A DNA stretch of 64,000 bases from Cannabis sativa (lineage: Eukaryota; Streptophyta; Magnoliopsida; Rosales; Cannabaceae): assembly GCF_029168945.1 (NCBI RefSeq), contig NC_083610.1, positions 51,787,429 through 51,851,428 on the forward strand, given 5' to 3'. The position numbers and the translations under genes are program-made. The notes under the pieces were generated by a model. That model was given only the letters and a program-made list of their open reading frames with translations, was not told where the DNA came from and made no database searches. Below, piece by piece: positions 1 to 63,900 of the stretch; position 1 is the first letter of the stretch, and the number at the start of each line of letters is the position of its first letter.

Positions 1-1760
1 CTCAGATCTCTAACCCTCGAATCCTTTCTGTAGCAGAGTATAATCAAGATCTGAGCCCGAATGTCCTTCTTCTTCAAGTTTGATCCTTCACAGTCTTCCA
101 ATCTATGATTGAGTTACTGCTTGCTGTGTGTGGGCACTTACTCTTTCAGTAGGGTTCGAAATTGATGAAGGGAAAAGAGAATAGGGATTTCGGCCAGGTA
201 TAGAAAGTGGGGAAGGCTTTATTTTTTTGAAGAGAGAAATTTCTGACAGAAAACTAATGAAAGCTTGTGTTGAAAACTTATAATTTGACTGAGCCATCAC
301 TTTCTATTTATAGGCAACTACTAGGTTTAGGTTAGGAATTATTTGGCATTAAAATAATGAAAATATTAATTTGAAAAACCTCATTAAGTGGCCGGCCAAG
401 GTGTAGTAGTGGGCCCCACTTGATTTTGCAGTTTTATCAAATTTTATTTCTATTTTCTCAAAAACGCCAATTTTTCAATTCTAACCTTTTAAATGCCAAA
501 ACTAATTATTTAATAACTATAATAGATTATTAAATAATATTGTCATTTAATTTAATTATTAATTAGACATATAAAGTCCATTAATAAAGAAATAAACCTA
601 GAAACTCTTTTCTTTACAATTTCACCCCTTCTTAGTGAAAATTCATAAAATTAGACATAGTCTAACTTTAGAATTATAATTGATCAATCACGAATCAATT
701 AAGGAGTCTTACAAGCAGAATGTTCTCAACTAGAATGGGGACCATGGATCTATATGCTGAGCTTCCAATAAGTGAACCAAATTTACCAAGTAAATTCCTA
801 CTTATTAATTCTTCGTTGAATCCACTCTTAGAACTTAGAATTGAACTCTCAGACTTATAAAGAGCATATTATATGTTCCACGATATCAATATGCTATCTC
901 ATTTAACCATTGTTATAATCTTATTGTGATTTAAAGATCCTCTATATAGATGATCTACATCGAGATGGGATTTCTTTACCGTTCTCACCCCTCAATGTCT
1001 TTTGCCCCTTAAAACACTTAGCTACCTGTAAATGGTGTTTAGTGATCTAATGATTAGTCAGTTAAACAAGAGCTCATCCATTTACTTCTATTTGCTAAGC
1101 TCGAAGGGAATCATCACTTGACTTCTATACACCAGTAGAAGCTATAGATTCCATATTTATGTTCAGCACTCCCACTCAATCATACTATCATGTTCCCAAA
1201 ATATACGTATCACCCTGACCTAAAAGTAGGCATAACTAATAAATCAAAGAACATGAATAGCACTCCTGAGTTGAGCCTAAGCATATCAGGATTTAGATTC
1301 TTTTAATCTTAAGATCAACTACTGATATTGACTTGGAAAGATATGTATAACGGTAAGTTTGTAATATCTTAACTTAGTTGCAATATCGGTCCAGTCCAAT
1401 GTATACTCCATACATTCGAAACTAGTATACTTTACTAATGTCCTGGAAAGAACATAACACTTACTCCAAGTGTAAGTACACATCATCGCTGATTATCACA
1501 TTAGTGTAAATCCAATAACACTGATGAAACAGGGACCAAGTCTTTTGATTCATATGATCACAATCACATTCCACTGTGTTGACGATACTGTAATTGTGAA
1601 TAAACATATGATCTGGATTTAACTGATTTTGTGTGTAAATGTAATAAACATATTAAACCATTAGCATGTAAAATTCATGCAAACATCAATCACTTCAAAT
1701 TTCTTATATTGATAACTAATCAGATTGTAAAGAGTTTTATTTAGGGCATAAAACCTAACA
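1..1760 (-). repeat. Reversed copia LTR (element Z), partial
   Basis: This is the reverse complement of the 1.89-kb LTR seen whole at 8053-9941 and 59020-60912. The right end at 1760 is the LTR start (reverse complement of TGTTAGGTTTTATGCCC). The left end runs off the window, so about 160 bp of the LTR 3' end are missing. A reverse-strand TATA box (CCTATAAATAG) lies near 305-315. It is either the 5' LTR of a minus-strand element lying to the left or a solo LTR. It abuts plus-strand LTR sequence at 1761 without a spacer, which fits insertion into the 5' LTR of element A. Confidence 0.85.
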
Positions 1761-2040
1761 GCCACACACAGCAAGTGGTACCTCAATCATAGATTGGAAG
1801 ACTGTGAAGGATCACACACAAAGAGAATGATACTCGGGCTCAGATCTTGATAATACTCTGCGACAGAAAGGATACAAGGGTTAGAAATCTGAGTGGAAGG
1901 AGACATTATTCTGCTGCTACCAATGTAAGGTTTTCTTAACTTTATATGTGTTTAATTATCGTTTTAGAAAGTTCATATTTAGGGTGTTAAACAACATACT
2001 TTTGAGTAGATCTAAGATCCTGGTAAAACAAATTCCAACA
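1761..2040 (+). repeat. Remnant of 5' LTR of element A
   Basis: The last 280 bp of the LTR, matching 60620-60912 and 9660-9941, ending in CCAACA at 2040. It contains the sequence CAATGTAAGG at 1921-1930, which looks like a 5' splice donor (GT at 1925). The promoter half is separated from it by the reversed LTR to the left. Confidence 0.85.
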
Positions 2041-2041
2041 A

Positions 2042-2060
2042 CTGGCCTCTGAGCCATGGT
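2042..2060 (+). other. Primer binding site of element A
   Basis: Directly after the LTR end comes CTGGCCTCTGAGCCATGG. It resembles the initiator-Met tRNA site of plant copia elements (TGGTATCAGAGCC) but has TGGCCTC in place of TGGTATC. Element C has the same variant, while element B has the canonical form. Confidence 0.7.
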
Positions 2061-2409
2061 AATTGATTTGCTTGCAAGAAATTTGCACTTAAAATGATTT
2101 GTTTGTGATTTGGATGGTTTCATGTTGTTTTGTGTGTTATATGATGATTGATTGATGTTTGTGAATTTTCGTGAAAAATAATTAAAATTCTGTTTCTGGA
2201 ATTATTTTTATTGGATATTTTGGAAAAAATTAAGTAATTTACTTTTTTACAAAACTCAATTTCGATTTTATTTGAATTAGTTATGAATTTTTGAAAATCG
2301 GAAAAATATCAGGGTGGTGCAACTACCTACGCGCGCGGATGAGGGGCATCCCTCGGACAACACGCACTCAGACAAGGTTTCTCGGTCAAGCATCTCCCCT
2401 AGCGCGCGC

Positions 2410-2445
2410 GGACAGTATGCATCAGTATGCATTTGCATACTGTCC
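2410..2445 (+). promoter_or_regulatory. 12-bp hairpin in GC island of leader A
   Basis: GGACAGTATGCA (2410-2421) and TGCATACTGTCC (2434-2445) are perfect inverted repeats with a 12-nt loop. Equivalent hairpins lie at 61369-61393 in C and 38648-38675 in B, at a similar distance from the primer binding site. The function is unknown; an RNA dimerisation or packaging element is an inference. Confidence 0.65.
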
Positions 2446-4911
2446 GTACAACTCGCAAATTTTTTCGTTTTCTTCGATTTTTCATGCTATTTCATGGAAT
2501 TAACTTCCGATTTTTTATGTAGTTTTGTATTTTGATTTTTACTTTTCAATTTTCAAATCTAATTATCAGAAATAAATTAATTTGAATTTTTTTAAAAATT
2601 AATTTTAGATATTAGTGTAATTTGAATCTGAAAATAGGTAAAAATCTATCTTTTTGCTTAATTTTTTATCTTAGTTTTAAATTTGATTATTTTATCTTAT
2701 TTTTTTTTTAAATTTAAGGTCAGATACTAAATTTTTTAAATTAAATATTTTTTTAATTTGACCTTATTTAAATTTAAAATAAGATTACTATAATCATGAT
2801 ATATTGAATAGAAATAAGATATTTTGCTAACATTTTAAATTTTGTTATTTTATTTATTTAAATTAAATTATAAAATCAGAAAAAGATATTAATTTATTTT
2901 TTTTTATTATTTTATTGAATATTTAATTTATAATATAACATGAAATTTTTAAAAGTGGTTAGCAAATTTTTTGAAATGATATTTAGGTTAACCTATTTTT
3001 TTAAAATTGTAGGTTTAATTTTAAATATTATTTTATTTTATATTAAATTCTGAAAATATATTTTTTTTTATTATTATTTATTATTTTTCGAAATTTAGTT
3101 ATTTAAAATTAAATAAATCCTACATCCAACTATCCAATTCATCTTGTTGCAGGCGTATGTGTTTTAGCTTATGTGTAAGTTTTATAAAACCTATTATTGC
3201 TTGATCTAAATTTCCATGGTTAACTTGTTGACAGATCCAATGATCTGATTTTAACCCATGGTTGATTTGTCAATAGGTTAAGTAAATAATTTGTAACAGG
3301 TAAATTTTACATTGTTCTTTCATCTGTGTATGACCTAGTAACATGATAGGGTCCATCCAAATCTGTGTGCATGTGTGAGCCTATATGTTTATTTTATTAT
3401 AGATGCATATAGGTTGTTGCTAAATAAAATGTCACACCTTGATAGATTTTATTTAGGTCAATTAATAACAGTTATTTATTTTAAGATTAAATTCCTCTCT
3501 TTTGGGCACTGTGTGAAAGTTGGGGGCCAATAGAAGTGGGTACGACATACTGAACCCAACTCCCCCTCACATGAACTATCCCAATTGTGAAGGCCCATTT
3601 GCCTGATTTGAATAATTGTGCTATGTTAATTAAATTACTTTATCCTAATAAAATTGATTAGCAACATAATTAACTTTTAAAATATATGAAATTTATTTTC
3701 ATTTTAATATTTTAAAGTTAATATTAAGAAAAACACTCTTAGTTTTAGATATTATTTCTAGATAAACTATTTGTATTTTTCTTGTATTTAATTAAATAAA
3801 GAATTTTATCTAACTAGATTCTTTCTGAAGCTTATTTATTAAATATTCCTATTTAAGTTATAAATTAGTTATTTTAACTCATTTTCCTCATCTTACATAA
3901 ATTTGAAAAGATACTTAGTTGAAATGAGATATTTTCTAGATAGTTATTTCTGGACTACTTATTATTTCTAATATTAAATAGGAAATTATTATACATTGTG
4001 AAATCAATTATTTAAATAATTAATTTTGCTGCAATCAAAGTTAAGAATATTTTTCCTAGTAATAAACTAGAGATTAATAATTAAGCCTTCTTTACACTTA
4101 ATTATTTATTTCTTGAATTTAATATATTTAATTAAATTGAAAAATAAAATATCTAAGTTGATTTTCATCATGATACTTAAATATTTTTTTTCATGACACT
4201 TAATTAAATAGAAAATTATTTTAAGTTGAAATTTATTTTTTCAACTTAAATTTAAATAATTTTCAAAATATATTTTATTTATTTTATTAATCAATTTCGA
4301 AATTGCATTTAATTATGCAAGATGATTCTGAATTTATCTTGAAAAATAGATTAAGTTGTAAATTAATTATTTATTTTAATTAATTTTTGGACCAACTTAA
4401 ATCAATGATTTTTTCATTTAGTAATTAAGTTACAATAAATAAATTAAAATATATTATTAGAAATTGAATTAATTAGTCAAAAAGAAAATCTAGATAGGTG
4501 ATATTTTTGCTTGAAGTATTTTTTCTAAGTAATTATTATTTAAGTATTTCGAAAATAGTATAGTATTATACTTTCTTTTTCAAAATACAATAAATATATT
4601 CTTATGAAAATTTAAATTTGAGTTGCAAATTAATTTAAATTAATACAACTTAAATTAAATAATTTTCTTAATATTTATTGAAAATTCATACTAAGATGGA
4701 AATAATTCAATTTATTTTCATAACCATCTAAGTTTAATTTTATAAATATTAAATTAAATTCTATTTAGAGTTTTTTTCTAAATTTCATATTTAATGAATA
4801 TATATATTATAAATAATAAAAGAAAATGCATTTTAAATAATGAGCTTTATTATCATTAAGATATTCGATCTCCATTGTTGGTTTTACATAACTTTTGTTT
4901 TAATGAGTAAT

Positions 4912-5211: not shown

Positions 5212-5373
5212 CTGATATCAGTTTGTTGAAAACCATGGAAATTATTTAGGATTGTATTTTTTAGTATTTTCTCTTATCATTCCTACTTGCTATGTGCTTA
5301 TAATTTCTGAATTGGATTTTGTGTTAAACCATAATTGATTTCTATTTTTTATTTTGTAGTATCCTGTATAGCC

Positions 5374-6259
5374 ATGTCAAATCCCATGTTATCACTCTTG
5401 ACTAAAAATAAGCTAAGTGGATCTAACTTTCCAAAATGGAATGAGCACATTAATATTGCTCTCATAGGAGAAAGTGCCTTGTTTGTGTTAACTGAGCCGT
5501 CTCCTGAGCAGCCGGGTGACAATGCAACCAAAGCTGTTAAAGAGAAGTTCGAGCGTTGGCAGAATGATAACAATAAAGCTCGATACTTCATGCTTTCCAG
5601 CATGGTTGACACCCTTAAAACAAGGTTTGCAAAAACCGATACGGCTGCAAAAATTATGATGCAATTAACTGAGCTATTCGGTATGACATCTATTCAGTCT
5701 CGCTTTGACGCGACTAAGAAGTTCATCAATGCACGAATGAAACCCCATCAGAATGTGCGTGATCATGTTCTCCTAATGGCAAGTTATTTCCAGGAAGCCC
5801 AGAATTCATGGTGCTGAAATGGATCACACTACTCAAGTAAGCCTTATCTTGAATAGTCTGACTCCAGCTTTTCTGCCCTATACATCAAATTATGTCATGA
5901 ATAAAAAGGAAATAGACTTTCATGAGTTAGTCAATGACCTTCAGACATATGAAAATTTGATTGGAGGACCAAAGAAGAAAGGGAGTAAACCTCACAATTC
6001 TGGAAATGGTAATGGGACGGTTAAACCTGAGGCACATGTAGCCTCTACTTCAAGACCCAAATCAAAGAAGAAGTGAAAAAATACCAAGAAGCGAGCCAAA
6101 GCTGTAAAAACAGTTCAAAACAAAATGGCTGCTGCTACTTGTGATGCACTAAAAGGAAAGTGTTTCTACTGCAATGAGAAAGGCCATTGGAAACCCCAAT
6201 GTCCTAAACTTGTTGCAAAGAAACAAGGTATTTCTTTCTATAAACTTGAAGAGTTTTAG
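5374..6259 (+). pseudogene. gag: Copia Gag of element A, one frameshift and one stop
   Basis: Gag is the capsid and nucleocapsid protein of the retrotransposon particle. The ATG at 5374 opens with MSNPMLSLLTKNKLSGSNF, typical of the copia gag N terminus, followed by the SGSNFPKWNEHI capsid start. The frame shifts by one near 5793-5800 and continues from 5819 (MDHTTQVSLILNSLTPAF). A TGA at 6074-6076 interrupts the basic C-terminal part. After it comes the zinc knuckle CFYCNEKGHWKPQC (CX2CX4HX4C), and the frame ends at 6257-6259. No protease follows, so gag stands alone. A T-rich stretch ending in GTAG (5359), just before the ATG, looks like a 3' splice site. With these two lesions this copy would not give full-length Gag, but capsid and zinc knuckle are both recognisable. 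Confidence 0.8.
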
Positions 6260-36448: not shown

Positions 36449-39008
36449 TACAACATATCAATAAACAGAAGTAAGGTTTTGGTTCTATAAATTCATACAC
36501 AAGTTCAGAAAATAACAAATAATCACATATGTTATAAAAATACTAAATCTAACATAGTTTATTTTCCAAGGTTTCCAACAAACTGATACAGTGTCCCGTT
36601 TAGGCGAGAGTCAAAGCATCATCCATTGAATAGAGTTGTCAATTCATCTAAAATGACAATCATTCTAGCAACCTTTTATTCAATCAAGATTGGAATTCAG
36701 CGTTGTCCCGTTTAGGCGAGAGTCAAGGCAATTCTATCTTATGAGCTTCCACCATTGTTTCATACTCTTGTAAGTCTTATACAGTCGCCACCATTAGGGT
36801 GGTCAAAAACAATATAAAAAACTTACAAGAATACTTATCTTTCGAGATTAAACGGCGCTAACTTTCTAATGAACGTTCCTCCATTAGGGAGGATTACTCA
36901 CTAAAACAATAGCTATGTAAAACCAACAATGGAGATCGAATTTCTCATGATTAAAGCTCATTATTTAAAATATGTATTTTATTTAATCATTTATATTCCA
37001 TATCTTAAATAATGACACATTACAAATTAAAGTTTTTTTTTTAAAAAAACTTTAATTAAATTTCAAAAATGGAATAAATTTGAAAAATATCTTATTTAAG
37101 TTGTTTAGAGAAATCTAAAATATCCAACTCAAATATTCTTCAATCAATGACTTAATTAAATATTAACAATTAAGTGATAACCACTTATTTTAGAAGATAT
37201 TCCATCTTAAGTTTTCCATATTTATTAAATATCAACTTAAAAAATATCCAAAGAATCTTAATAATCAATTCCTAAAATTCCTCAACTTAATTTATAATAG
37301 TAAATTCAAAAGATATTCAAATCTAAGTTCATTTGTTAGATATAACTAAATCTCAACTTAAATATGAATATTTAATGAAATTATTAAATTAAGATTCAGA
37401 AAGAATTTACATGGTTATAATTCTATATTTAATTAAACACAAGAAAAATACATATAGTTTTTCTAGAATATCATTCTTCAAACTATGTTTTTCTGAAATT
37501 AATTTCAAGGAAGAATGAAATTAATTATGTTGCTAATCAATTTTATTAGGTTAAACTAATATAATTAACCTAGCACAGTTATCCAAATCAGGCAAATGGG
37601 CCTTCACAATTGGGGTTGTTCATGTGAGGGGGAGCTGGGTTCAGTATGTTGTACCCACTTCTATGGCTCCCAACTCTCACACAAGGCCCAAAAGAGAGGA
37701 ATTTAACCTTAGCATGAACAACTGTTCTTAATTGAATAGGCCCACTACTAAATGAGCCTAAATAAAATCTATCAAGTTATGACATTTTATTTAGCAACAA
37801 CAACCTATACGTATCTATAACAAAAATTAAACATATAGGCTCACACAAGCACACAGATTTGGATGGATCCTATCATGCTACTAGGTCATACACAGATGAA
37901 AGAAGAATGTAAAAATTACCTGTTACAAATTATTTACTTGATCTATTGACAATTGAACCATGGGTTAAAATCAGATCATTGGATCTGTCAACAAGTTAAC
38001 CATGGCAATTTAGATCAAGAAATAATAGGTTTTCGAAAACTTACAAACAATCTAAAACACATACTCGTGCAACAAGTTAGATTTGGATAGTTGGTTGTAG
38101 GATTTATTTAATTTTAAATATATATTTAAAAAAAATCGATTTTAAAAAAAAATATAAAAATTAAACCTACAATTTTGAAAAATTAGGTTTTAGGTAACCT
38201 AAATATCATTTCAAAATAAATTTCTTAACTTACCTTTTAAATTTCATGTTATTTAATAAATTAAATATTCAATAAAATAGAAAATGGTAAAGTTAACAAA
38301 AATATCTTATTTCCTCTTTTAAAATATCATGATTATTTTGATCTTATTCTAAATAAGGTCAAGTTACCAAAAAAAAATTAATATCTGACCTTAAAAAAAA
38401 ATAAAATAATCAAAGTTTAAAGGAAATAAGAAAAGAGGTAAGAAAAACTTGATTTTAACCTATTTTCAAATTCAAATTATACTAATATCTAAAATTAATT
38501 TTGAAAAATCAAATTAATTTATTTCTGATAATTAGATTTGAAATTTGAAAAACAAAAATCAATATACAAAACTACACAAAAAATCGGAAGTTAATTCCAT
38601 GAAATAGCATGAAAAATTGAAAAAAATGAAAAAAATGATGAACAGTACGGATGGTATGCGTAGCATACCCATCCGCCCGTGCATCTCGGTTGCTGGTCGA
38701 GCTCTCACGGCGCAGGGAGGCTGCATGCAGCCATTCCGCCCGCGTGGGAAGGTGCTCATCATCCCGATTTTTCCAATTTTTGAAAATTCATAACTAATTC
38801 AAATTAAATCGAAATCGAGTTCTGTAAAAAAGTAAATTGCTTAGAATTTTCCAAACTATACAATAAAAATAATTATAGAAATAGAAAAGTAACTATTTTT
38901 TCCAAAATTCACAAACAACAATCAATCATCAATATGACACACAAAGCAACATGATACCATCCAAAACACAAACAAATCGTTTTAAGTCCAATAAGAAAAT
39001 CAATTTAC
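36449..39008 (-). other. Leader of element B
   Basis: 2.6 kb of AT-rich non-coding sequence, homologous to the leaders of A and C. Islands in element order: GC-rich hairpin block 38760-38640; the AAGTGGGTACAACATACT-like block near 37650; stem-loop 36892-36878; 21-nt motif twice (36724-36704 and 36612-36592). A T-rich stretch ends in TTGTAG at 36448, just before gag. Confidence 0.65.
38648..38732 (-). promoter_or_regulatory. GC-island hairpin and palindrome in leader B
   Basis: In element sense, CGGATGGGTATGC pairs with GCATACCATCCG across a 3-nt loop with one bulge (38648-38675). Beside it GGCTGCATGCAGCC (38719-38732) is a perfect palindrome. Compared with A and C, the hairpin differs in both arms at matching places. 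Confidence 0.6.
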
Positions 39009-43679: not shown

Positions 43680-44044
43680 GTTTCCCCCAAGTCTGTGCGG
43701 GACTTTTGAAGTTGCGTGTAGACTTCATCCGAAATGCTTTTACATTTGAATGGATGACACGTGTTGGGTGCGTCTGTTCGTGATTCGATGAGAGTCTGAC
43801 CAAGCGTCTCTTCAATTTTCAGCTAATTAATGCTCGAACTTAATTAATGCCTTGAAACATGGTTTTCTTCGCACGCTTTGACAGTTACACTTGATTGATT
43901 TTAATTTCCCAATACTTTCTTTTGGGGGAAAATCAGATGTTTGAGGGATTTCCAAATGATTACCTTTTTTTCACCAAATTACCTATAAATAAGGTTGGAA
44001 CTTCTTCATAATTTACCAACACTCCATTAAACAAACTCAGAGCA
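43680..44044 (+). promoter_or_regulatory. F: purine tract, antisense promoter, first leader part
   Basis: After the purine tract, the plus strand has a TATA box CCTATAAATAAGG (43982-43994), followed about 30 bp later by a CA-rich start region (AACACTCCATTAAACAAACT). Element E is inserted at 44045, about 50 bp past the TATA box, within the presumed 5' untranslated exon of the antisense ORF of F. That exon continues at 55744. Confidence 0.5.
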
Positions 44045-44893
44045 TGTTGTCGAGTGAATTTCGCAACACCAATTTTATATGATACTATTAATAACAGAAA
44101 GAAATCTATATGAAGAACAAGTGCGAGTATTCAACCTAGAGTGGCGAGTACTCAAACTGGGAACGAGAAATGATTAACAGAAAACTGGAAATAACAATGA
44201 CACAAAGGATTATAGTGGTTCAGTCAGATCACGGTCTGCTTAGTCCAGTGTAGCAAGAGTTTCGTAGGTGCCATTTCACGGAGGATCACCCCTTTATATA
44301 CAAAGCATGTGTCCGATCAGTTATACAAGGATTGCATTAATTGTCAATCCGTTTTTACACATTGAATTACAATAATTAAACTAAACAACGTTAACATTAA
44401 TAAATGAACGGCAGTTACTAAGTTCATCAACGTGTGCGTCTTCCGAATCTACGAGTTAACTGTTCATATTCTGATGTTAAACTCGCAGGTTTATCATTAT
44501 GTTTAGGATGTCTGCGTCCTTAGATAGTCGCCTTATGTGGACATCGCATGGCGAGCTGATAGAACCTAGACATGCGAGTCTATATTTGTTTATCAAGGCT
44601 ACAGGGTTCTTAGAACCAAATCTTGTTTATAGACAGTCGGTCTCCTGGTTTATACACGGACATGGGGAGGATGCTCGCACATAATTCGATATATGCGAGC
44701 TACTCTCTTGTCTCGAATGCGATCAGACTTTGGTCATGCTCGCTATCTCTCGCTGATTCTATCTTAAGCGAGGTTTGAAACTTCGAGGAGTCCCTCATGG
44801 ACATTTCAGCTTTCATTGGAAATCTGAGTATACGTGTCCTCTAAATAGGGGTCTGGTCTTGAGTTTCTAGGTGAGAGAAATCTCACTATAACA
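44045..44893 (-). repeat. 3' LTR of element E (849 bp)
   Basis: TGTTGTCGAGTG to CTATAACA. Reverse TATA box TATATAAAGGGG near 44288-44300. The terminal 33 bp plus the purine tract are repeated downstream (see 44861-45032). Confidence 0.9.
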
Positions 44894-54874: not shown

Positions 54875-54894
54875 TTCCCACAGACGGCACCAAA
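54875..54894 (-). other. Primer binding site of element E
   Basis: Reversed TTTGGTGCCGTCTGTGGGAA directly after the 5' LTR, the usual site of plant Tat-type elements. Confidence 0.8.
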
Positions 54895-55743
54895 TGTTGC
54901 CGAGTGAATTTCGCAATACAAATTTTATATGATATTATTAATAACAGAAAGAAATCTATATGAAGAACAAGTGCGAGTATTCAACCTAGAGTGGCGAGTA
55001 CTCAAACTGGGAACGAGAAATGATTAACAGAAAACTGGAAATAACAATGAGACAAAGGATTATAGTGGTTCAGTCAGATCACGATCTGCTTAGTCCACTG
55101 TAGCAAGAGTTTCGTAGGTGCCATTTCACGGTGGACCACCCCTTTATATACAAAGCAGGTGTCCGATCAGTTATACAAGGATTACATTCATTGTCTATCC
55201 GTTTTTACACATTGAATTACAATAATTAAACTAAACAACACTAACATTAATAAATGAACGGCAGTTACTAAGTTCATCAACGTGTGCGTCTTCTGAATCT
55301 GCGAGTTAACTGTTCATATTCCGATGTTAAACTCGCAGGTTTATCATTATGTTTAGGATGTCTGCGTCCTTAGATAGTCGCCTTTTGTGGACATCGCATG
55401 GCGAGATGATAGAACCTAGACATGCAAGTCTATATTGGTTTATCAAGGCTACAGGGTTCTTAGAACCAAATCGTGTTTATAGACAGTCGGTCTCCTGGTT
55501 TATACATGGACATGGGGAGGATGCTCGGACATAATTCGATATGTGCGAGCTACTCTCTTATCTCAAATGCGATCAGACTTTGGTCATGCTCGCTATCTCT
55601 CGCTTATTCTATCTTAAGCGAGGTTTGAAACTTCGAGGAGTCCCTCATGGACATTTCAGCTTTCATTGGAAATCTGAGTATACGTGTCCTCTAAATAGGG
55701 GTCTGGTCTCGAGTTTCTAGGTGAGAGAAATCTCACTATAACA
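54895..55743 (-). repeat. 5' LTR of element E (849 bp)
   Basis: Same length as 44045-44893 with few differences. Reverse TATA box TATATAAAGGGG near 55138-55150. Ends CTATAACA at 55743. Confidence 0.9.
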
Positions 55744-57363
55744 AAGCAAAAAGGAAATTTTCTTCAAGTCTGTCATGATATTTCTATCTGAGCCATTTGA
55801 GCAGCTTCGTTTGGACTACATTTAGGCTTCAAACAGTGAGCAAGTTTTCAATCTTCTCCTCTTTTAACTTTTCATTTTTAATTTATGAGTTTCCATTGTA
55901 GGAAATGCCCTTATTCTTGACTTGTTGTAGAAGATACATAGAAAATCTAGGCTCGAAACTTTATAGCTTTCTTTGCAATATTTTGTACAACTTCGTGGTT
56001 TACGACATTATGCCTTTAATCTAGCATTGCTCTATTTTCACCTTGCTCATCCGAAGCTTCGTGAAATTTAACTTTTAACCCAAAAAATTTTAAACTTATT
56101 GGTTTTGACTTAACTTTTTGTGCATTTTTTGTCCTTTTAATTTGTTGGGTGGTCCTGGTCGACGCTTTTTCCTGTTTATTGTTCGATTTCCTGGCCAAAC
56201 ACTCATCTCGTGTGTTGTCTTTTGTAGATGAACCTTGGTGTGTTTTGTGGAGGCGAACACTAAATTGACTAGGCTTTGCTTCAACTCTTGTACGAGGAGA
56301 GGATCAACCTCATCTTCGTGCCAGTCCATCCTCTTCGAGTGACGGACTTTCTAACTCGAGCTTTGAAGATTGGGAAGTGAGTAGTGATCATTCTCCTACT
56401 CCAGAACCCATACGCAACATCACTCTTACACCGAGCAGATCCCAGGAGAAGGGTACGGCCGCTTCATTTGGGAATGTAAGAAGGGTTGGAGGCATTATCT
56501 TCCGGCTAATTGGACATATATTGTCTGGCCAGGTGTTGCTGACATCCTTCCTGTTGGCCGTCAAAGTTTTGGTAACTTCGGCATCCCAGTAGTTGTCCCT
56601 ACTGTTAATGTTGCAAGACACACACATTAGTATCCATCCAGGAGAAGGAAGATGGCTCGCACAAAGCAAACTACGCGGAAAGTCAATGCATCTGACCCTC
56701 ACGTGGCTTAGCTCGCCACGTTACCAAGGGCTGAGCAAGATCTGCCAGCTATGGAGGAGGACGATCTTGAGGGGGACATTGAGGTCCAGGAGATAGAGGA
56801 ACAGGACGACGTCCGTCCTGATATCCCTTCCGAAGCTGAGGAGGAAGGAGTGGTCGAGGCTTTAAATTTTGGACGGTATAATGAGGCTGGGGAGTCAGTG
56901 TCTGCGTACGGTGATGCCTTGGTCGAGGGGGAGGACTATGTCACCGAGGAGCTTACTGAGGCAGTTCCCCACAGGAGGCAAAGTGCCTTAGGTGCCAGAT
57001 GGGTGAGCCCTCCGTCCAAAATAAGTGAGGCACGTATGAGGGCCTAAGGCTGCGTACTTGTGCGGATTGGAGTGTTACGTCCCTTCTTTGAATCACCAGG
57101 CAACAAACCCACAGAATGGTTTTTGTGCTTGGTCAAGTGCTCACACTAAGCAAGGGGCGATGGTGCCTTTGCACTCGTACTTCAAGAGGGTGGAATATTA
57201 TTTTCACCTTTGTCTGACCTAGTTCATTCCAAAGGGCATTAAGTATTTGTCGGCCATGTTTGTCCTCTACGCCATTGAAGGATGGGGTGTGTCGTGTCCA
57301 CACGAGGTCAATTGGTTTTTTGACTTGAAGTCTACCCCTAAGCAGAGCAGGTCAGGGTACTTC
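55744..57363 (+). pseudogene. Antisense ORF of gypsy F, cut by copia LTR G
   Basis: Continuation of the antisense unit of F after element E. The first exon ends at a donor AAACA/GTGAGC (55836), which aligns with CAAACA/GTAAGT in D. An intron of about 390 nt ends in TCTTTTGTAG at 56227, directly before an ATG. The coding part is broken: Ser/acidic stretch (SNSSFEDWEVSSDHSPTPEP, about 56340), acidic MEEDDLEGDIEVQEIEEQDD (56751), then the Transposase_28-like domain near 57060-57363 ([38 protein letters not shown]). The domain is interrupted at 57363 by an LTR. Several stops and shifts occur. Confidence 0.6.
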
Positions 57364-59019
57364 TATTGGGTTTTATGCCCTAAATAAAACTCATTTCAAT
57401 ATAATCAGATTTACTTATTAATAAAGATCAGAAATAACATTTTATGTTGCATGGTTCACATGATTTATTTCCTGATTATATGTACATAATGTATGAATTC
57501 TATTTAAGTCCAGAACATATGAATTTGTTAATGATTATAGTGTTGTCAGCACAGTGGAATATAATCTTAATTATATGTTCGAAAGTTTATTCCCTGATTT
57601 GTCAGTTCACTGGATTTAGACTGACATGATAATCAGCGATAGGTATTCTTACACCTTGGATAAGTCTTATGTCCTTTCCAGGGCATTGGCAAAGTTTACC
57701 AGCATCGGATGTATGGAGTATACATCGGAAGGGGCCGATATTGAACTTTGATTAGATATATTAAAATTTACCGTAATATCTATTCAATTCAATATCACAT
57801 GTTGATCCTAGATCAAATGATCTTAATTCTAATATGTTTAGGTTCGATCTCAAGAGTATTATACATGTTCTTTGATTTGTTAGTTAAGCCTACTTTTGGG
57901 TTAGGGTGATACGTACATTTTGGGAACATGATAGTGCAATTGAGTGGGAGCGCTAACATAAATATGGAATCTATAGCTTCTATCTAACAAATATAAAGTA
58001 AAGGATGATTTCCTTCGAGCTTGACCAAACGAAAATAAATGGTGGAGTACTCATTTCACTTAGCTGAAATATCATTTATACGGGGTTAAGTGTTTTAAGG
58101 ACAAAATACATTGTAGGGTGTTTCGGTAATCTAATCCATTTACAGTGTAGATCATCTATATAGAGGATCATTGATCAAATTAGGATTATAACAATGGATA
58201 ACTAATGACGTGTCTATATGGTGGAACATATAGAGCGTTCTATATACTGAGAGTGCAATTCTAAGTTCTATGCGTGGATTCAACGAAGAATTAATAAGTC
58301 AGTGAATTTAAGATATAAATTCTTGATTTGCTTATTGGAAGCTCGGATATATTGACCCATGGTCCCCATACTGGTTGAGACCATACTGCTTGTAAGACTC
58401 AGTTAATTGATTTTGATTAATCAATTATAATTCTAAAGTTAGACTATGTCTAGTTTATGAATTTTCACTTAGCAAGGGCGAAATTGTAAAGAAAAGAGAT
58501 TCTAGGTTTATTTATTAATTAAGAGACTTTATATGTCTAATTAATAAATATATTAAATGACAATATTATTTAATAATTAATTTTTAGTTATTAAATAATT
58601 AGAATTGGCATTTAAATTGTTGAATTTGAAAATTGGCGTTATTGAGAAAATGAGATGCAGAAATGATAAAACAGCAAAATTGCATAAGTAAGGCCCATTA
58701 TCCAAAGCCCAGGCCAGCCACTATTGTAGGCTTTTATCATTTATTTTTTCATTAATTTAATGCCAAATAATTCTAACTTAAACCTAGGTGGTTACCTATA
58801 AATAGATAGTGATGGCTCTCATTCACACTTAACTTTGTGAACTTTGTCAGATGAAAACTGAGCCTCTTTCTATTTACCTTGCCGCCACTTCTTCTTCTCT
58901 TTTCCCTCTTCAATTTTTCGAACCTTGAGTGAAGGAGTGAGTGCCCACACACATCAAGTGGTATCTCAGTCATAGTGTGTAAGACTGTAGGAGAATTCCA
59001 AACAACAAGAAGGAGATTC
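57364..59019 (+). repeat. Copia LTR G, interrupted by element C
   Basis: Starts TATTGGGTTTTATGCCC (TG changed to TA) and follows the 1.89-kb LTR for about 1656 bp, with the TATA box CCTATAAATAGATAG near 58796. Its 3' end is displaced by the insertion of C at 59020 and should lie right of the window. It sits inside the antisense ORF of F. Confidence 0.8.
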
Positions 59020-60913: not shown

Positions 60914-60932
60914 CTGGCCTCAGAGCCATGGT
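60914..60932 (+). other. Primer binding site of element C
   Basis: CTGGCCTCAGAGCCATGG, the same variant Met-type site as in A (one base different). Confidence 0.7.
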
Positions 60933-63900
60933 AATTGATTTGCTTGCAAGAAATTTGGACTTTAAAATGATTGTTTGTGATTTGGATGGTTTCGTGTTGT
61001 GTTGTGTGTTATATGATGATTGATTGATGTTTGTGAATTTTTGTGAAAGATAATTGAAATTCTGCTTCTGGAATTATTTTTGTTGGATAGTATGGAAAAA
61101 ATTAAGCAATTTACGTTTTTACAGAACTCAATTTCGATTTAATTTGAATTAGTTATGATTTTTTGAAGTTTCGAAAAAAATATCGGGATGAAGCACTCAC
61201 CCACGCGCGCGCGGAACTGAGTGATCCTCGGTCATACGCGTGTTCGGACAAGATCTTGTCCGAGCAACACGCCCAGGGGTGTCTGAAACCCCCTCTCTGC
61301 ATGCGGATATGCTGCAGCTTCATCCCTGCGCTGAGGTTTCTCGGCAGTGGACCTCCCTGCGCGCGCGGGGACAGTATGCTGTGCATACTGTCCGTACAAC
61401 TTGCATTTTTTTCGTTTTTCTTCGATTTTTCATGCTATTTCATGGATTTAATTTCCGATTTTTTGTGTAGTTTTGTATTTAGACATTTACTATTCCTATT
61501 TAAATTCTAAATATCATAATTAAATTAATTAATTTTTTAAAAATTAATTCTTGGTATTAGTGTAATTTGAATTTGAAAACAAGTAAATATCTATCTTTTT
61601 GATTGATTTTTTATCTTATTTTTAAATTTGATTATATCTTATCTTATTTTAAATTTATGGTCAGATATTATTTTTTTTTAAAAAAATTAAATATTTTTTT
61701 TTAATTTGACCTTATTTAAATTTAAAATAAGATAACTATAATCATGATATTTTGAATAGAAATAAGATATTTTGCTAATTTTTAATTTTTGTTATTTTAT
61801 TTATTTATATTGAATCATAAAATTTGAAAAAGATATTTATTTATTTATTTTTAACTTATATTGAATATTTAAATTTATAAAATAACATTAATTTTTTTTT
61901 AAAAGTAGTTAGCAAATTTTTGATATGATATTTAGGTTAGTTGAAACCTAATTTTTCAAAATTGTAGGTTTAATTTTAAATATTATTTTATTAATTTCGA
62001 AAATATATATTTTTTATTATTTTTAATTCGAAAATAAATATTTTTTTTATTATTTAATTATTTTTCAAAATTTAATTATTTAAAATTAAATAAATCCTAC
62101 ATCCAACTATTCAACTAACCTTGTTGCAGGAGTATGTGTTTTAGCTTGTTTGTAAGTTTTATAAAACCTATTATTGCTTGATTGCAAATAGCCATGGTTA
62201 ACTTGTTGACAGATCCAATGATCTGATTTTAACCCATGGTTCAATTGGTCAAGTAAATAATTTGTAACAGGTAAATTTTACAATCTTCTTTCATCTGTGT
62301 ATGACCTAGCAACATGATAGGATCCATCCAAATGTGTGCCTGTGTGAGCGTATATGTTTATTTTATTATGTAGATGCATATAGGTTGTTGCTAAATAAAA
62401 TGTCACACCATGATAGATTTTATTTAGGTCCATTTAGTTTCTGGACCTATTCAATTAATAACAGTTATTTATTTTAAGGTTAAATTCCTCTCTTTTGGGC
62501 CTTGTGCGAGAGTTGGGGGCCAATAGAAGTGGGTACGACATACTGAACCCAGCTCCCCCTCATATGAACTACCCCAATTGTGAAGGCCCATTTGCCTGAT
62601 TTGAATAACCGTGCTAGGTTAATTAAATTAGTTTAACCTAATAAAATTGATTAGCAACATAATTAACTTTTAAAATATATGAAATTTATTTTCATTTTAA
62701 TATTTTAAAGTTAATTTTAAGAAAAACACTCTTAGTTTTAGATATTATTTCTTGACAAACTATTTGTATTTTTCTTGTATTTAATTAAATAAAGAATTTT
62801 AACTAACTAGATTCTTTCTGAAGCTTGTTTAATTAAATATTCCTATTTAAGTTATAAATTAGTTATTTTAACTGATTTTTCTTATCTAACTTAAATTTGA
62901 ATATTTTATTTAAATTTAAAATTAAGTTGAGGAATTCTAGGCATTAGTTATTAAAGATTCTTAAGATATTTTTTAAGTTAGTTTTAAACTTAAAATGGAA
63001 TATTTTTCAAATTAAGTGGTTACAACTTAATTTTTGATATTTAATTAAATTTAAATTTGAAAATATTTAAGTTCTAGATTTTTTCTAATACAACTTAAAT
63101 TAGATATTTTTCAAATTTTGTGGAAAAGATACTTAGTCAAATAAGATATTTTCTAGATAGTTATTTCTAGACTACTTATTATTTCTAATATTAAAATAGG
63201 AAAATATTATATATTGTGAAATTAATTATTTAAATAATTAATTTTGGTACAATTTATTTTAAGTATATTGTTTCCTAGTATTAAACTGGAAATTAATAAT
63301 TAAGCCTTCTCTACACTTAATTATTTATTTCTTGAATTTAATACATTTAATTAAATTGAAAATTAAATATCTAAGTTGATTTTCATCATGATACTTAAAT
63401 ATTTCTTTTTCATGACACTTAATTAAATAGAAAATTATTTTTAGTTGAAATTTATTTTTTCAACTTAAATTTAAATAATTTTCAAAATATATTTTTCTTT
63501 ATTTTATTAATCAATTTCGAATTGCATTTAATTATGCTAGATATTTTTGAATTTATCTTGAAAAATAGATAAAGTTGTAAATTAATTATTTATTTTAATT
63601 AATTCTTAGACCAACTTAAATCAATGATTTTTTCATTTCTTAATCAATTTAAAATAAATGAATAAAAGTATATTATTAGAAATTGAATTAATTACTCAAA
63701 GGAAAATCTAGATAGGTGATATTTTCACTTGGAGTATTTTTTCTAAGTATTTATTATTTAAGTATTTCGAAAGTAAGTTTTTATACTTTCTTTTTCAAAA
63801 TACAATAAATATATTCTCATGAAAATTTATTTTAAGTTGCAAATTAATTTAAATTAATTCAACTTAAATAATTTTCTTAATATTTATATATTAAAATTAC

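What the first reader, a model, noticed from the sequence alone, without database searches (positions are those of the whole stretch)
2325..2452. Covarying hairpin in a GC-rich island shared by three copia leaders
About 330-460 nt after the primer site, A (2410-2445), B (38675-38648, minus) and C (61369-61393) each have an 11-13-bp hairpin in an otherwise very AT-rich leader. Both arms differ in step: GGACAGTATGC with GCATACTGTCC in A and C, GGATGGGTATGC with GCATACCATCC in B. At least two base pairs have changed on both sides. B and C also carry perfect palindromes next to it (38719-38732, 61245-61262). Seen: sequence and pairing. Inferred: a selected RNA structure, perhaps for dimerisation or packaging, as palindromic leader loops serve in retroviruses.
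Basis: partly seen in the sequence, partly recalled or inferred. Interest (0 to 1): 0.75.

Follow-up and report, generated by a model that had tools for sequence, protein, structure and literature searches.

The report
Modular hairpin domain in retrotransposon leader
Copies of one plant retrotransposon carry, near the start of their RNA, a chain of small RNA hairpins whose base pairing is kept while the sequence changes; it may be the handle by which the element's own particle protein picks up its RNA, although one very abundant branch of the family has lost this hairpin.

Summary
The hairpin is real in all three window copies; in B it has a bulged base. The host genome is held (770.7 Mb); a 29-base leader stretch just downstream of the hairpin has 11,014 matches there. 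The leader pieces I fetched (L001-L148) show that the hairpin ('H5') is the last of a chain of hairpins (H1-H5) in a GC-rich island, and that modules differ between subfamilies. Pairing is kept: 1,153 of 1,188 H5 cells pair. On internal tree branches 23 of 31 single stem changes keep the pair and 6 further changes are compensatory; 0 of 400 random sets of flank columns reach either value. So 'selected RNA structure' is supported (about 0.8). Dimerisation through a palindromic loop is not: 107 of 111 H5 loops are 3 nt and vary freely. Nor is the hairpin essential: a subfamily with 2,297 matches lacks H1-H4 and the left arm of H5. Best reading: a modular, replaceable leader RNA domain, most likely for Gag recognition and packaging (about 0.45). 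No RNA or protein data were available.

The parts
2410..2445 (+). Hairpin H5 of element A (the finding), loop enlarged by a tandem duplication
38648..38675 (-). Hairpin H5 of element B, one bulged base in the left arm
61369..61393 (+). Hairpin H5 of element C
2330..2446 (+). GC-rich island of A; by comparison a deletion derivative that lacks most of H2, H3 and part of H4
2341..2354 (+). Hairpin H1 of A (GAGGG / CCCTC)
2369..2387 (+). Remnants in A of H2 (left arm) joined to H4 (right part)
   Evidence: reading of the alignment
38648..38744 (-). GC-rich island of B
38719..38732 (-). Hairpin H3 of B (perfect 14-nt palindrome, GGCTG CATG CAGCC)
61204..61393 (+). GC-rich island of C, with its own set of hairpins before H5
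61244..61263 (+). 20-nt palindrome / hairpin in C, at the place of H2
2043..2055 (+). Primer-site-like TGGCCTCTGAGCC in A (B: 39024-39012; C: 60915-60927); complementarity to initiator tRNA-Met is recalled
   Evidence: reading
2481..2509 (+). Conserved leader stretch used as anchor (B: 38613-38585, exact; C: 61429-61457, not exact)
   Evidence: 11,014 places with at most 3 mismatches, reversed control 0

Best explanation
The hairpin is the 3'-most member (H5) of a modular array of RNA hairpins in the untranslated leader of a very high-copy plant copia family, between primer site and gag. Pairing of the stems, not the identity of the loops, is maintained while copies replicate through RNA. Most likely the array is a recognition domain of the genomic RNA that Gag binds to select full-length RNA for particles. 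Whole modules are lost, gained or replaced between subfamilies, probably by jumps of the reverse transcriptase at hairpins. Shown: hairpins, modularity, pairing kept beyond mutation-matched controls, variable loops. Inferred: that the function is at RNA level, Gag binding, packaging, and the jumps. My odds are about 0.8 for a selected structure and 0.45 for the whole statement.
For: Single folds of all three window copies. H5 pairing 1,153 of 1,188 cells, sliding the partner gives 21-51%; re-throwing each column's changes on a tree made from flanks only never reaches it (0 of 1500 under two weightings). Internal branches: 23 of 31 single stem changes keep the pair, null from the flank spectrum 0.35; 13 of 14 bootstrap trees give p below 0.05; 0 of 400 sets of random flank column pairs reach the keep fraction 0.74 or the 6 compensatory changes; H5 alone 1 of 300 and 0 of 300, H1-H4 together 2 of 300 and 2 of 300. 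Compensated pairs in single copies: L092, L119, L098. Loops of H5 change about 5 times as often per site as its stem on internal branches (4.33 against 0.86). The stem GGACAGTATGC / GCATACTGTCC stays the same in C- and F-type leaders with other upstream hairpins, but those loci were fetched by that very stem. Place: between primer site and gag, where packaging signals of retroviruses lie (passage).
Against: Subfamily D, 2,297 matches, has no H1-H4 and no left arm of H5, so H5 is not needed by all members. H5 stem sites change as often as flank sites (0.86 against 0.82). The number of H5 pairs with a double change is not unusual (222 and 442 of 1500 simulations reach it). The four H5 double changes are the two CpG-like pairs counted in the B and in the E clade; a different tree could make them two. 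H2 alone and H4 alone are not convincing for the keep fraction (129 of 288 and 15 of 292). A C.C mismatch in the H5 stem is shared by L088, L099, L100 and L115. Copies with ruined stems were dropped, which favours pairing. RNAalifold on the gapped A-type alignment found none of the hairpins as such. No binding, packaging or probing data.
Confidence: 0.45

Rival explanations
1. The structured leader serves nuclear export or translation (recruiting export factors, or letting ribosomes pass the long AT-rich leader), not packaging.
For: The highly structured leader of cauliflower mosaic virus recruits TREX for export (PMC12786077, passage). The leader here is over 3 kb long in A (primer site 2043, gag ATG 5374) and AT-rich.
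Against: Nothing here speaks for export or shunting in particular. D keeps only a short island.
Confidence: 0.2
2. By-product without RNA function: inverted repeats are made and homogenised by snap-back copying during reverse transcription, and the CpG-like step decays by deamination in ways that happen to stay complementary.
For: Duplications at the hairpin: CAGTATGCAT twice in A, longer loops in L006, L011, L038. A strand-biased mutation spectrum on internal branches exists.
Against: Snap-back copying would give double changes, but 23 internal changes are single changes that keep a pair, all of them transitions, against 8 that break one. With changes that create or destroy CpG removed the internal/tip contrast stays (25:8 against 47:66, p 0.0007; median p 0.07 over 25 bootstrap trees). 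Flank columns of the same base types do not show it.
Confidence: 0.2
3. Dimerisation signal: two genomic RNAs pair through palindromic hairpin loops, as in retroviruses.
For: Perfect palindromes in B and C; the H3 loop is CATG in 79 of 102 parsed copies, itself a palindrome; D has GCGATCGC inside its short island.
Against: H5 loops are 3 nt in 107 of 111 rows with 10 different 3-nt sequences. H3 centres change to forms that are not self-complementary. The 41-nt D stretch folds no better than shuffles (z 0.77; in its 81-nt setting z -2.58).
Confidence: 0.1
4. The hairpins are sources or triggers of small RNAs in silencing.
For: Hairpin-like structures in maize transposable elements correlate with small RNAs (PMC10760457, start of abstract in a listing).
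Against: H5 stems are 11-13 bp and H1-H4 stems about 5-8 bp, shorter than usual Dicer substrates (recalled). Silencing would not favour keeping the pairs in the element.
Confidence: 0.05

Closest known systems
Retroviral packaging signal psi (stem-loops SL1-SL4, with the dimer initiation loop in SL1)
   Same: A group of stem-loops in the leader downstream of the primer site (psi as described in PMC3902901, passage)
   Different: H5 has a 3-nt variable loop and no palindromic kissing loop; modules differ between subfamilies and one abundant subfamily lacks them; no function shown
BARE1/BARE2 of barley (copia), with conserved dimerisation and packaging signals in the leader
   Same: Copia element with a long leader; BARE2 is said to keep dimerisation and packaging signals (PMC3735527, passages)
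   Different: The passages seen give no sequence or structure, so the signals could not be compared; the original description (Tanskanen and colleagues 2007) is recalled, not read
Structured leader of cauliflower mosaic virus (export, ribosome shunt)
   Same: Plant reverse-transcribing element with a structured leader (PMC12786077, passage)
   Different: There a leader region of about 482-608 nt; here an array of short hairpins of about 120-200 nt in a leader over 3 kb

Membership tests
LTR retrotransposon, copia superfamily | gag, then integrase before reverse transcriptase, between LTRs | tested here: met
   B: Retrotran_gag_2, rve, RVT_2 in this order in one open frame between LTRs that are 97.3% identical
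LTR retrotransposon, copia superfamily | Primer site next to the 5' LTR | tested here: met
   TGGTATCAGAGCC in B and variants in A and C directly after the LTR, by reading; that it fits initiator tRNA-Met is recalled
Angela/BARE lineage of copia | Reverse-transcriptase phylogeny places it there | not tested
   Only a homologue list was made: a barley polyprotein is among the hits at 42% identity, the best hit is 62%
Retroviral-type packaging signal | Stem-loops with pairing conserved in evolution between primer site and gag | tested here: met
   with the limits given there
Retroviral-type packaging signal | Present in all replicating members | tested here: not met
   Subfamily D lacks H1-H4 and the left arm of H5; whether its own short hairpin takes over is unknown
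Retroviral-type packaging signal | Binds Gag and enriches RNA in particles | not testable with these tools
   needs RNA and protein experiments
Retroviral-type dimer initiation site | Hairpin with a conserved self-complementary loop | tested here: not met
   H5 loops 3 nt in 107 of 111 rows and variable; H3 centres partly not self-complementary
Rfam family | Match at the gathering score | tested here: not met
   0 matches in the whole window

The most novel reading that the evidence does not exclude
The leader carries a swappable recognition domain: subfamilies of one copia family have diverged in their hairpin modules (A with H1-H5; B, C, E and F with other sets; D with one short hairpin around GCGATCGC) because packaging specificity co-evolves with Gag and with escape from parasitic relatives, so that the succession of subfamilies in a plant genome can be read as turnover of packaging signals.
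Probability: 0.12. Interest if true: 0.75.

Novelty: new variant of a known kind. Interest (0 to 1): 0.5.

Why it matters
How plant LTR retrotransposons choose the RNA that goes into particles is poorly known. A leader hairpin array with thousands of natural variants in one genome, including an abundant subfamily that has lost it, makes packaging signals testable by comparing variants. It is also a data set in which selection during the RNA phase can be told apart from later decay of inserted copies.

Tried and rejected
Relatives of the B polyprotein fragment in viral contigs: none confirmed. Leader anchor in genome contigs and viral contigs: 0 and 0. Rfam on the window: 0. RNAalifold on the gapped A-type alignment: -1.9 kcal/mol, none of the hairpins H2-H5. 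A plain internal-against-tip test (29:8 against 69:73, Fisher p 0.0014; median p 0.05 over 25 bootstrap trees) turned out to be confounded by a plus-strand excess of C>T and A>G on internal branches that the flanks show too; it was replaced by spectrum-matched and flank-matched controls. An outer helix P1 around the island forms in 9 of 10 single folds (not in L023), and a helix P2 at its base looked subfamily-specific, but left and right sides do not fit their own subfamily better overall (530 of 5040 permutations as good for P2, 1362 of 5040 for P1; P2 own partner best in its row in B, A_CACT and A_AGCT, 3 of 7). P1 and P2 are therefore not claimed. Literature: the answered searches listed no paper that describes this structure; most subscription journals are not held, and only listings and passages were seen.

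Rows and sampling: 127 copies were parsed for H5; the script found both arms in 120 and no right arm in 7 (L003, L020, L025, L087, L091, L103, L104; L104 has a shortened one). 9 of the 120 were set aside as damaged or misparsed, leaving 111, of which 108 are in the tree. About 80 loci were picked by similarity to the A island or the B leader; 50 by an exact anchor that D- and F-type leaders do not match exactly (47 distinct from the others, 43 of these 47 with a right arm by the script); 8 by an exact A stem; 8 by the exact D junction. Frequencies among them are not genome frequencies. The genome counts are whole, but (3,284) a near-perfect hairpin can be counted on both strands, so distinct places lie between 1,653 and 3,284.

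Full report
What was checked. One correction: in B the left arm has an extra, bulged base. In A the long loop comes from a 10-base tandem duplication. The pairs that differ on both sides between A/C and B are two neighbouring pairs.

Where it lies. The window holds several copies of one copia family: B is bounded by two LTRs on the minus strand (97.3% identical), A has lost most of its 5' LTR where another copy, D, is nested, and C runs off the window. Protein domains are those of copia. A 29-base leader anchor just downstream of the hairpin has 11,014 places with at most 3 mismatches, and 0 for the reversed control. Perfect A-type stems: 777 places. With up to 3 mismatches the A kind gives 3,284 strand matches (between 1,653 and 3,284 places, since a near-perfect hairpin can count on both strands) and the B kind 1,615.

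What it is. The fetched leaders show that the GC island is a chain of hairpins. In many A-type copies these are H1 (GAGGG/CCCTC), H2 (CAGACAC/GTGTCTG), H3 (GGCTG/CAGCC), H4 (CCGAG/CTCGG) and H5, the hairpin of the finding, with GCGCGCGGA-like stretches before H1, H3 and H5. Paired cells among parsed rows: H1 236 of 240, H2 331 of 357, H3 493 of 510, H4 271 of 294, H5 1,153 of 1,188. Modules come and go: A lacks most of H2-H4; L013, L014, L018 and L022 lack H3 and H4; C- and F-type leaders carry other hairpins upstream while H5 is the same (the F-type loci were fetched by their perfect stem).

Is the pairing selected? Compensated pairs at other places exist in single copies: L092 (A-T to G-C), L119 (T-A to C-G), L098 (G-C to A-T, with L117 as the G-U step). 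In H2 one pair is C-G in 22 rows and A-T in 14, but mismatched in 14 others and T-G in 1. A tree was built from the flanks only. Re-throwing each column's changes over it never reached the observed H5 pairing (0 of 1500 under two weightings), while the number of doubly changed pairs was ordinary (222 and 442 of 1500). A plain comparison of internal and terminal branches (29:8 against 69:73) proved confounded: internal branches show a plus-strand excess of C>T and A>G in the flanks as well. With the flank spectrum as null, 0.35 of single internal changes should keep a pair; 23 of 31 do, and 13 of 14 bootstrap trees give p below 0.05. Terminal branches also exceed their null, less strongly (64 of 133 against 0.325). 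Random pairs of flank columns of the same base types on the same tree keep 0.36; none of 400 sets reaches 0.74, nor the 6 double changes. H5 alone: 1 of 300 and 0 of 300; H1-H4 together: 2 of 300 and 2 of 300; H2 alone and H4 alone are weak for the keep fraction (129 of 288, 15 of 292). The four H5 double changes are the two CpG-like pairs, counted once in the B and once in the E clade. On internal branches H5 loops change about five times as often per site as the stem, but the stem changes as often as the flanks. I take selection on pairing as likely, about 0.8, with the caution that rows with ruined stems were dropped.

Loops do not look like dimerisation loops: 107 of 111 H5 loops are 3 nt, of 10 sequences, and H3 centres also take forms that are not self-complementary. 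And one subfamily does without: copy D beside A has a short island with only the right end of H5, and its 30-base junction has 2,297 places at up to 3 mismatches, the first 100 listed all exact. The eight fetched by that exact junction have the same short island. So H5 cannot be a signal that all members need. D may have its own hairpin around GCGATCGC: the 41-nt stretch folds no better than chance (z 0.77), the 81-nt setting does (z -2.58).

How it most likely works. A recognition domain of the genomic RNA, read by Gag, fits the place, the modular build, conservation at the level of pairing, and loss or replacement between subfamilies. Export or translation roles remain possible. The leader has a donor-like AATGTAAGG in U5 (1922-1930) and an acceptor-like TTCTATTTTTTATTTTGTAG (5340-5359) shortly before the gag ATG at 5374 in A (reading). 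If used, spliced RNA would lack primer site and array, so that only full-length RNA would carry them. This is inference.

Known things. Retroviral psi and the BARE copia leader are the nearest. PMC3735527 (passages) says that BARE2 keeps dimerisation and packaging signals, without sequences in the passages seen; the original description (Tanskanen and colleagues 2007) is recalled, not read. PMC12786077 and PMC3902901 were seen as passages; those passages describe no structured packaging signal of a plant copia leader.

Noticed in passing
window 1-1762; L071: A minus-strand copy (D) of the same family begins at 1761 and is nested in the 5' LTR of A; its leader lies left of the window and has a short island without the left arm of H5.
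   Followed up: yes
window 57363-59019; L072: C sits next to a related, about 77% identical LTR, probably a nested insertion. A related element in L072, on the far side of C, has a leader that breaks off inside its H3 palindrome.
   Followed up: partly
window 1922-1930 and 5340-5374: Donor-like site in U5 and acceptor-like site just before the gag ATG of A: the AT-rich leader of over 3 kb may be an intron.
   Followed up: partly
L127, L128: In both, another LTR end (CCCAACA) abuts the hairpin island, as if an element had inserted into it; a listed abstract says LTR retrotransposons often target palindromes (PMC6911290, title and start of abstract).
   Followed up: no
flanks of the sampled leaders: On internal branches C>T and A>G exceed G>A and T>C per base by about 1.7 and 2 times, while terminal branches are nearly symmetric (counts): a strand-biased mutation process during replication.
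   Followed up: partly
window 44044-44893 and 54894-55743: An 850-base direct repeat, 96.5% identical, probably the LTRs of another element.
   Followed up: no
L122, L132: In both, LTR or U5 sequence is joined directly to the part of the island just before H4 or H5, so the primer site and upstream leader are missing.
   Followed up: no
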